Shown here: piece by piece, positions 30,131-59,413 of the stretch
How the letters are laid out: each line of letters begins with the position of its first letter
How positions within the stretch are numbered: position 1 is the first letter of the stretch
Source: Spiroplasma eriocheiris
GTDB lineage: Bacteria > Bacillota_I > Bacilli_A > Mycoplasmatales > Mycoplasmataceae
Length of the DNA stretch: 64,000 nucleotides
Direction of reading: 5' to 3'
Assembly (NCBI RefSeq): GCF_001029265.1
Contig: NZ_CP011856.1
Location: forward strand, 930,001 to 994,000
Made by a program: the position numbers and the translations under genes
Notes under the pieces: model-generated
Told to the model about the DNA's origin: nothing
The model's database searches: none
Seen by the model: the letters and a program-made list of their open reading frames with translations, nothing else

Positions 30131-30247
30131 TTTGTCATCCTTTCTCAAGATATCTTTTCCCACAATTTTAATTGTTTCTTTTATTATATATGATAAAGAT
30201 TTTAAGTGCGGAAAAAAACAAAATATTTTAGTTTTTAAAATCTCGAT

Positions 30248-30256
30248 TATGATAAT
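30248..30256 (+). promoter_or_regulatory. Probable -10 region of the 30.3 kb unit
   Basis: TATGATAAT, with TATGAT or GATAAT as -10, faces the unknown gene at 30354. A weak TTTAGT at 30227-30232 could be a -35. Divergent from lgt. Confidence 0.4.
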
Positions 30257-30260
30257 ATTT

Positions 30261-30327
30261 AAAAGGAGGTTAATAACCGAGAGTGTTTAAAACACCAACA
30301 ATTATTTTGTTGGTGTTTTTTTATTAA
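30261..30327 (+). promoter_or_regulatory. Leader with attenuator-like hairpin (shared element, copy 1)
   Basis: Between promoter and gene lie AAAAGGAGGT (30261-30270), the dyad GGTTA/TAACC (30269-30279), and the 17-base element GAGTGTTTAAAACACCA (30281-30297) leading into a 13-bp stem (30289-30301 with 30307-30319) and a T-run. No plus-strand gene lies upstream, so this is not an ordinary gene terminator. GTG at 30283 after the Shine-Dalgarno opens a 14-codon peptide beginning MFKTP. The same element precedes the lipoprotein at 59.3 kb. Attenuation is inference. Confidence 0.6.
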
Positions 30328-30353
30328 TCATCCACAAAAAGGAGGTGCTTTTA

Positions 30354-31109
30354 ATGAAAAATGATGCTAAATACCCAGAGTTTTCTAATTTTGTATTTCC
30401 TGATTTTGAAGGTAATAAGTTAATAGCAAGTTGGGAAAAATGTCAAAGAGACTGTGTTTCCGATGATCCGAATGATATTTTCTCTATATTTTTTACCCAA
30501 AGTGTTAAATTAATTCAAGACCAATTTCAACTAGCAGTTAAGATTGTGAAAGAAAAAATCGGGTCTGATGAAGAATCAACAACAATAGTCCCAATAATAT
30601 GTGAACAATTAGTTAAAAATATTACTACCATTCAATCTAACACAAATATTGCGATGTTAAAAATTATTAATAATGATATTTGGAAAAAGATAACATACCA
30701 TAATTTTCAAAAAATTCCTGGCAAGTTCCGAATCTCAAAAGAAGAGAAAAAAATAATTGGTATAATTAATAATTTTATTAAAAAGAATGAAAACATCATG
30801 AAGAAAACTACCAACTGCTGAGAAAAAGAGAAAAAGAAAAATTTAACTAAAATTGCTGATTTACTAACCGCTTATCTCAAACTTACGGATGCTGAACAAG
30901 CCCAATTTACTGAAATAAATGATTTTATCCTTAGTTACAAAGAACAGTTTAACATCCCCAAAATATCACAAGAAATTACTAACCAATTTAAATTTTATCA
31001 AACCAAACTGGCGGGACCTAATTATGAAAGTTCCAGCGTATATGAGGAAGATTCACCAATTGATTTGTCATTCTCAGGATTCAATCCGGATGAAGAATCA
31101 ATTCGGTAA
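30354..31109 (+). CDS. Hypothetical protein, 251 aa
   Basis: Not recognised. Soluble, no signal peptide or TM segment. The N-terminal part holds FSNFVFPDFEGNKLIASWEKCQRDC, the middle is probably helical (SVKLIQDQFQLAVKIVKEKI, EQLVKNITTIQSNTNIAML), then a Lys-rich stretch around WEKEKKKNLTKI, and an acidic Ser-rich C-terminus (YESSSVYEEDSPIDLSFSG). One UGA-Trp. Start ATG 30354 follows AAAAAGGAGGTG, a very strong ribosome site. It is a single-gene unit with a hairpin leader and lies where the missing 3' end of pflB would be, convergent with it. Confidence 0.75.
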
Positions 31110-57689: not shown

Positions 57690-59324
57690 CTATTCAGCGC
57701 TAAGATTAATAAGCAACGGTAAATATGTTGAATCAGCAATTTTATAACCGGTTGTCATTCATTGACCAATGGCCCCAAATGATAAAATAAAATTTCATCC
57801 CGTAACACCTTGATTTGCTGGATTATGATAAGGAACTAATCATTGAGAATCATTTTGTTTTTGTAAACAAGGGTCATTCCCACTATCATAATAAATCCGA
57901 TCATTTAAACCATTAAACAAATCAATATCTGGTAATGTCTGCACATCTTTTTGGGTTTTAAAATCACTGATTAATAGCGGTAAAAAATTATTTAAATGAC
58001 TATTATTGGGATCTTTTAATTTATTACTTAGATCCTGATTAATGGTAATCGCAACTTGGGGTAGCTGTTGATTAGAAGTGAAATGGAAATAATTAAAAAA
58101 CTTCACGACAATGTTTGCAAAGTTATCTAATTTTTGTTGCATACCCTGTTTAGAAGCTTTTAAATCTAAAGCTAGGGCTGTTCCCCCTTTGGTTACCACC
58201 CCTGATAATGGTAATCCCGCGATGGTAATAATATTAAGGTTAATCTTAAAATTAGCTAAGTCAAAAACATCCCCACTACTAAAAATTGACGAAATTTTTA
58301 AAAAGAACTGTTCAAAATTAGCAATGGTAATTTTACTAGGATCATAACCATTTCCCGTTCAATTTCAGGGAGCGCTAGCAGCAGTCACTGGCTCAACTCC
58401 GTTGGTCGTATTATTAACCCACTGACTTAATAAGGTAATAAAACTTTGACTATTATCATATTTAATATAGCTTAAATAATTTTGTAAAGCCGGCAGGGTT
58501 TTAATCATCGCTTGAAAACCATTTAGAACAAGATTATTAACTACTGGGCCATTTTTATTATCATCAAAATTAATCTGGAATTTTTGGAAAATATTATAGA
58601 ATTTAGACTGTGGATCATCAATGGTAACATTTTGTAAGTTATTAAAATAACCAATTGTCGCATCGGAAATAATTCCAATAATTTTACCAATCGTATTTTT
58701 AATAGCATCCACCCGGTCAGTAGCAATAAATTTAATATTATAATCAATATTTGAACTATAAGTTTTATATTGGACAGTATAGCGTAAAGCAATATTAATT
58801 GTTACCGCGGTTGCTGTTTTAATTGAAGGATCATTAATCAAACTAGCTAACGTATCAAGGTCAATATAAGTTGCACTAATTTTAACGGGCGTAGCTGCTA
58901 ACACCAAGGGATCGCTCGTTAAATAATAAGCAGCATATTGATGTTTAATTTTAGCATTAATTGAATTATTAAAATACTGTTTAAAATTATAATATAAATA
59001 TTGGAGCGCGGAACCATAATTAGCGTCCTCGTAATTCAAATTAACATCTGGTTTTTCTTTAGAGACTAATTTGGCAATGGCACTAAATGCCGGTTGCACT
59101 CCTCCTAATGTAATATCAATGATATTATTTTGTTGAGCACTATAGTCATTTAAATCAGATAATGATTCTTCTTCAATTTTGGATAAGGTTTTTAAATCAT
59201 TATTGATATCATTATCACCCCCACCGGAGTCAGCATTATTATTTATTGGTTTACATCCAACTAAACTAACACCAGGGGCGGTTGTTAATAAAATAATTCC
59301 TAAATAAGTTAAAAGTTTTTTCAT
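57690..59324 (-). CDS. Lipoprotein of the ABC cassette, 544 aa
   Basis: Lipoprotein: MKKLLTYLGIILLTTAPGVS signal and lipobox LVGC (Cys about 24), then an acidic Gly/Asn linker (NNNADSGGGDNDINND) and a secreted domain. No known family; not a recognisable sugar or peptide binding protein. It has a hydrophobic TVDxxx-free body with repeats like INFDDNKNGPVVNNLVLNG and INQDLSNKLKDPNNSH. UGA-Trp several times. Start ATG 59322-59324 after AGGAGATG. It is probably the substrate-binding or surface partner of the two permeases. Own promoter and hairpin leader upstream. Confidence 0.85.
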
Positions 59325-59350
59325 CTTTTGTTCATCTCCTTTAATTAAAT

Positions 59351-59413
59351 AAAAAACACCAATCATATTAAAAACTAATATCACTGGTGTTTTAAACACT
59401 CTTATATAATATA
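59351..59413 (-). promoter_or_regulatory. Promoter and leader hairpin (shared element, copy 2)
   Basis: Minus strand: -10 TATATT (59408-59413), with TTATTA at 59432-59437 as likely -35 (18-base spacer), then GAGTGTTTAAAACACCA (59385-59401), identical to the element at 30281-30297, a hairpin whose arms AAACACCA and TGGTGTTT enclose ATATTA/TAATAT, and a T-run. This may also serve as terminator of the ATPase gene. The region also reads as an in-frame extension beginning MFKTPVILV. Confidence 0.6.

What the first reader, a model, noticed from the sequence alone, without database searches (positions are those of the whole stretch)
30261..30322. Shared leader element before two unrelated genes, possible attenuator or operator
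The 17-base string GAGTGTTTAAAACACCA occurs at 30281-30297 (plus) and 59385-59401 (minus). In both it sits between a -10 box and the ribosome site, overlaps the left arm of a hairpin (AAACACCA/TGGTGTTT) and is followed by a T-run. The loops differ in sequence, but at 59.4 kb the loop itself contains the dyad ATATTA/TAATAT. GTGTTTAAAACAC is itself a dyad, so it could either pair alternatively with the hairpin arm (antiterminator) or be an operator just downstream of the start of transcription. At 30.3 kb no gene lies upstream, so it is not merely a terminator of a preceding gene. Each also starts with GTG TTT AAA ACA CCA, i.e. MFKTP, a possible hydrophobic leader peptide; at 30.3 kb a strong Shine-Dalgarno precedes it.
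Basis: seen in the sequence. Interest (0 to 1): 0.65.

Follow-up and report, generated by a model that had tools for sequence, protein, structure and literature searches.

The report
Shared RNA attenuator controlling ten genes
Ten genes or operons of a Spiroplasma, including one for a DNA/protein-transfer machine, begin with the same 16-base RNA signal fused to a stop-transcription hairpin, which suggests an undescribed common on/off switch in a bacterium with few known regulators.

Summary
The shared string (18 bases) has only two exact copies in the 1.366-Mb genome, but both belong to a ten-member family: GAGTGT-NNANA-ACACC (0.10 expected, 0 for the reversed pattern). In all ten, ACACC is also the left arm of an intrinsic-terminator-like hairpin (ACACC…GGTGT + T-run) lying between a -10-like box and a gene. 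Nine one-mismatch sites in the same genome all lack the hairpin. GTGT-N5-ACAC can form a 4-bp hairpin that excludes the terminator, so I read these as transcription attenuators answering to one unidentified factor. Downstream genes include a type IV secretion/conjugation operon, lipoproteins, several Spiroplasma-only proteins and a glyoxalase-like protein. A sister genome keeps the element unchanged before four intact genes, but mutated or deleted before two broken genes, the two in this window. The element is absent from 12 other genus genomes, the rest of the family sample, Rfam and 84,980 species genomes. The leader-peptide idea fails (GTG is followed by a stop codon in three copies). BglG/LicT antiterminators and extra NusG copies are absent. 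No transcript data were available; termination, the factor and the signal are inferred.

The parts
30248..30256 (+). -10-like box (TATGAT / GATAAT) 24-27 nt upstream of the element at 30.3 kb
   Evidence: Consensus match only; no mapped transcript start
30241..30282 (+). Further inverted repeat TCTCGATTAT...ATAACCGAGA around the likely start of transcription; found only at this locus
   Evidence: Sister genome keeps the pairing: C-G to A-T on both sides, and A x C becomes A-T (sequences; alignment)
30281..30296 (+). Conserved element GAGTGT-TTAAA-ACACC, copy 1: GTGT (30283-30286) can pair with ACAC (30292-30295)
   Evidence: one of 10 genome copies
30289..30319 (+). Intrinsic-terminator-like hairpin (13 pairs) followed by a T-run; its left arm overlaps the element
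   Evidence: hairpin alone -16.2 kcal/mol, z -4.66
30340..30345 (+). Ribosome-binding site AGGAGG
   Evidence: Direct reading
30354..31109 (+). Target gene: 251-aa protein of unknown function (code 4); disrupted ortholog in the sister genome
   Evidence: no Pfam/NCBIfam/PHROGs family
59408..59413 (-). -10-like box TATATT, 6 nt upstream of the element
   Evidence: consensus match only
59386..59401 (-). Conserved element GAGTGT-TTAAA-ACACC, copy 2
59353..59393 (-). Intrinsic-terminator-like hairpin followed by a T-run; arms AAAACACCA.../...TGGTGTTTT
   Evidence: z -5.72; hairpin kept in the sister genome, where one internal mismatch becomes a pair
59335..59340 (-). Ribosome-binding site AGGAGA
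   Evidence: Direct reading
57690..59324 (-). Target gene: 544-aa lipoprotein of a multi-copy Spiroplasma family
   Evidence: LP_plasma signal, slightly under cut-off

Best explanation
Each element is a transcription attenuator in the 5' leader of an mRNA. By default the nascent RNA folds ACACC...GGTGT into an intrinsic terminator just ahead of the gene and most transcripts stop there. When a factor (most likely an RNA-binding protein, less likely a small RNA) holds the small hairpin GUGU-NNANA-ACAC, the terminator's left arm is occupied, polymerase reads through and the gene is expressed. Because the 13 fixed bases are identical in ten leaders of mostly unrelated genes, one common factor should switch the whole set on and off together. 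Shown: the motif, its strict spacing, its fusion to a terminator-like hairpin in 10 of 10 copies, its position before genes, and its conservation with intact genes in the sister genome. Inferred: actual termination, direction of control, the factor, and the signal.
For: Ten copies against 0.10 expected (P about 2e-17) and 0 for the reversed pattern. All ten are followed by a hairpin with a T-run and then an ORF, while none of the nine one-mismatch sites has such a hairpin (Fisher P 1e-5). The spacing is strict: in this genome all 7 hits of GAGTGT-N{14,44}-GGTGTTTT have exactly NNANA-ACACC. At both window loci only 30-35 bases lie between hairpin and start codon, leaving no room for another promoter, so the gene must be read through the hairpin. 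Thirteen of 16 positions are invariant. Pentaloop positions 1 and 4 are complementary in all copies (A-U, U-A, C-G). Sister genome: 0 changes in the 16-base element in four pairs with intact genes; one change in the pair whose gene is broken; hairpin and RBS deleted before the other broken gene. The -10-like box lies at varying distance (about 6 to 50 bases), which suits an RNA signal.
Against: No transcript or termination data. The small hairpin is weak (-2.0 to -2.3 kcal/mol) next to the terminator (-7 to -19), so it cannot win unaided. No candidate factor was found: no CAT_RBD antiterminator domain and only one NusG. The covariation rests on three pair types (22 of 500 shuffles reach it). 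The ten copies represent about seven independent leaders because some genes are duplicates.
Confidence: 0.6

Rival explanations
1. DNA operator: GAGTGT-N5-ACACC is a near-palindromic binding site (RGTGT-N5-ACACC) for a repressor that blocks RNA polymerase just downstream of the promoter; the hairpin is secondary.
For: Near-dyad symmetry and strong base conservation; short distance to a -10-like box in several leaders.
Against: Does not explain why ACACC is always also the left arm of a terminator hairpin (10 of 10). The -10 distance varies from about 6 to about 50 bases. The complementary loop positions 1 and 4 are off the dyad axis.
Confidence: 0.2
2. The signal works without a dedicated factor: the hairpins are constitutive partial terminators that set a fixed low expression level, and GAGTGT is a pause, processing or stability signal.
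For: No factor identified; the terminator is much more stable than the alternative.
Against: A fixed partial terminator needs no identical 13 bases or fixed spacing in unrelated leaders; one-mismatch sites carry no hairpin.
Confidence: 0.15
3. Leader-peptide attenuation: GTG TTT AAA ACA CCA... encodes a short regulatory peptide.
For: A Shine-Dalgarno-like AAAGGAGG lies 13 bases upstream at 30.3 kb.
Against: Three of ten copies read GTG-TAA or GTG-TAG; the sister copy at 59.4 kb has GTT in place of GTG.
Confidence: 0.01
4. Coincidence: two ordinary terminators that share arm sequence.
For: Dispersed 17-mer repeats are not rare in this AT-rich window.
Against: Ten copies against 0.10 expected, all with hairpins, strictly spaced.
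Confidence: 0.01

Closest known systems
BglG/SacY/LicT ribonucleic antiterminator (RAT) systems
   Same: A short RNA hairpin in the leader overlaps the left arm of an intrinsic terminator, and protein binding to it allows read-through (established knowledge).
   Different: The RAT is about 30 nt with a different sequence; the RAT-binding domain CAT_RBD (PF03123) is absent from all 14 genus genomes; targets here are not sugar-transport genes.
LoaP / specialised NusG antitermination
   Same: A leader hairpin lets a specialised elongation factor pass terminators (established knowledge).
   Different: Each genome has one NusG only.
Premature-terminator attenuators surveyed by Naville and Gautheret 2010 (PMC2965389)
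   Same: A premature intrinsic terminator in the leader with a competing structure.
   Different: Mollicutes and Spiroplasma are not mentioned in the main text; this motif is not in Rfam 15.
Phage lambda boxB hairpin (N antitermination)
   Same: Small hairpin with a pentaloop bound by an antitermination protein; loop consensus NNANA resembles GNRNA (from memory).
   Different: Loop position 1 is A, C or U here, not G; the stem also competes with the terminator; no N-like protein was sought.
CIRCE/HrcA operator
   Same: Contains GAGTG.
   Different: The TTAGCACTC half is absent in every copy read.

Membership tests
Transcription attenuator with an intrinsic terminator | Terminator-like hairpin plus T-run in the leader, upstream of the gene | tested here: met
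   10 of 10 copies
Transcription attenuator with an intrinsic terminator | Alternative structure that excludes the terminator | tested here: met
   GTGT/ACAC uses terminator arm bases in all copies, but is weak alone
Transcription attenuator with an intrinsic terminator | Regulated premature termination in the cell | not testable with these tools
   No RNA data held
BglG/LicT RAT system | CAT_RBD antiterminator protein encoded in the genome | tested here: not met
   0 of 14 genomes; control genomes found
LoaP / specialised NusG | Extra NusG paralog | tested here: not met
   One NusG per genome
Known riboswitch, T-box or other Rfam leader | Match above Rfam gathering score | tested here: not met
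   None in the window or in the leaders of nine loci (tRNAs only)
Leader-peptide attenuator | Conserved short ORF | tested here: not met
   GTG-TAA / GTG-TAG in three copies; GTT in the sister genome
CIRCE operator | TTAGCACTC-N9-GAGTGCTAA | tested here: not met
   Second half absent on direct reading of the leaders

The most novel reading that the evidence does not exclude
An undescribed RNA-binding antitermination system of the Spiroplasma mirum clade in which one factor recognises the hairpin GUGU-NNANA-ACAC and switches on a regulon of about ten genes or operons together: a type IV secretion/conjugation machine, lipoproteins and clade-specific proteins that could be its cargo.
Probability: 0.3. 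Interest if true: 0.8.

Novelty: new variant of a known kind. Interest (0 to 1): 0.62.

Why it matters
Mollicutes have few transcription factors, and how they coordinate host-interaction genes is poorly known.

Tried and rejected
Exact 17-mer search: only two copies, which alone would have refuted the finding; the family appeared only after searching the hairpin arms and noticing GAGTGT upstream. One-mismatch copies: all lack hairpins. Genome contigs and viral-contig scans of element plus hairpin: scattered hits in unrelated bacteria and phages, several inside apparent reading frames and none in Spiroplasma, taken as chance (genomes very near the window may be left out there). Rfam: nothing. 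CAT_RBD and NusG paralogs: not the factor. Leader peptide: rejected. Lipoprotein homologs of the 59.4-kb gene in other genomes and type IV pilin loci in other genus members: a crude hairpin scan showed no such element (minus-strand loci were not re-oriented). Protein relatives of the 251-aa gene product in genome contigs and viral contigs: none. Papers: no report of such a leader found in the open-access library searched.

Full report
Observation. The 17-mer is present exactly where stated, and the shared identity is 18 bases. The genome (1,365,714 bases) has two exact copies. Repeats of 17 to 21 bases occur elsewhere in the window by chance, so the string alone would be weak evidence. Both copies, however, precede a strong terminator-like hairpin that lies 30-35 bases ahead of a start codon with a good ribosome-binding site.

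The family. Searching the hairpin arms (AACACC…GGTGTTTTTT) gave seven places in the genome; six of these have GAGTGT at a fixed distance upstream, the two in the window among them. The pattern GAGTGT-N5-ACACC has ten matches (five per strand), none when the pattern is reversed, and 0.10 expected: genome positions 388747+, 646200+, 647254+, 659452+, 800951-, 960281+ (window 30281), 989386- (window 59386-59401), 999400-, 1086677-, 1207903-. All ten run into a hairpin whose arms start with ACACC and end with GGTGT, then a T-run, then a gene. Allowing one mismatch adds nine sites, none with such a hairpin. The looser search GAGTGT-N{14,44}-GGTGTTTT recovers seven of the ten and no variant in spacing. 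The consensus is GAGTGT-NNANA-ACACC with 13 of 16 positions invariant; loop positions 1 and 4 are complementary in every copy (A-U, U-A, C-G), though this rests on three types. Some copies share ancestry: 646200, 647254 and 999400 have similar leaders, and 800951 and 1207903 head related genes. About seven leaders are independent.

Targets. Copy 388747 heads an operon of a lipoprotein, an Mbov_0395-type pilin, an Mbov_0396-type membrane protein, a VirD4-like coupling ATPase, a VirB4-like ATPase and an Mbov_0399-type protein, i.e. a type IV secretion/conjugation cluster. The others precede the 251-aa protein and the 544-aa lipoprotein of the window, a glyoxalase-fold protein (659452) and proteins without a significant Pfam match. 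That the latter are cargo of the type IV system is only a guess.

Sister genome. A genome of 1,132,608 bases in the same genus (G009) has four exact copies, each before an intact ortholog, with no change in the 16 bases, while hairpin loops and flanks vary. The two window loci are the exceptions. At 59.4 kb the element is GAGTTT and the lipoprotein gene is broken by an inversion. At 30.3 kb everything from the terminator arm to the start codon is missing, apparently by deletion between TTTAA repeats, and the gene is disrupted. Intact gene and intact element therefore go together, 4 of 4 against 0 of 2.

Distribution. No hairpin-linked copy occurs in the other 12 genus genomes or in the rest of the 60-genome family sample, nor convincingly in 84,980 species genomes or viral contigs (genomes very near the window may be left out of those collections).

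Mechanism. The -10-like boxes lie about 6 to 50 bases upstream, so the signal is most easily read as RNA. The terminator fold is strongly preferred; the GUGU/ACAC hairpin is worth only about -2 kcal/mol and would need a stabilising factor. That is the logic of LicT-type antitermination, but the LicT RNA-binding domain is absent from the genus, and there is no second NusG. Leader-peptide control is excluded by GTG-TAA / GTG-TAG in three copies. A DNA roadblock operator remains the main rival, but does not explain the invariable sharing of ACACC with the terminator. Direction of control, factor and signal are unknown.

Verdict. Real, non-random, and best described as a clade-specific family of leader attenuators defining a putative regulon. 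It is a new variant of a known kind (terminator/antiterminator switches).

Noticed in passing
window 30241-30282: A separate 10-bp inverted repeat around the probable start of transcription of the 251-aa gene; three of its four differences from the sister genome lie in the arms and keep or restore pairing.
   Followed up: partly
L122 1318-11439 (genome 388817-398938): Complete-looking type IV secretion/conjugation operon, with its start conserved in the sister genome, headed by the element; in this copy the ribosome-binding site GGAGGTG is itself part of the hairpin's right arm, so translation could be gated as well.
   Followed up: partly
L007; G009 818695-820772: Inversion breakpoint splits the sister genome's ortholog of the 544-aa lipoprotein gene.
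   Followed up: no
L109-L111 and L107-L108: Two groups of viral contigs carry GAGTGTCNAGAACACC followed by a GGTGTTTTT hairpin at the 3' end of a short ORF (possibly a Com-like zinc finger in L109-L111, by eye); probably chance overlap with a terminator, but the loop (CAAGA, CTAGA, CGAGA) resembles the Spiroplasma ones.
   Followed up: partly
window 57073/61591 and 61199/62092: Other dispersed exact repeats of 17-21 bases (TAAAAATAAACTACAAAAAAT; GATGGTGATGCTTTTTG), unexplained.
   Followed up: no
G000 646200-648700 and 999400: Clade-specific genes with similar leaders; the products of the 647254 and 999400 copies are paralogs (36% identity).
   Followed up: no
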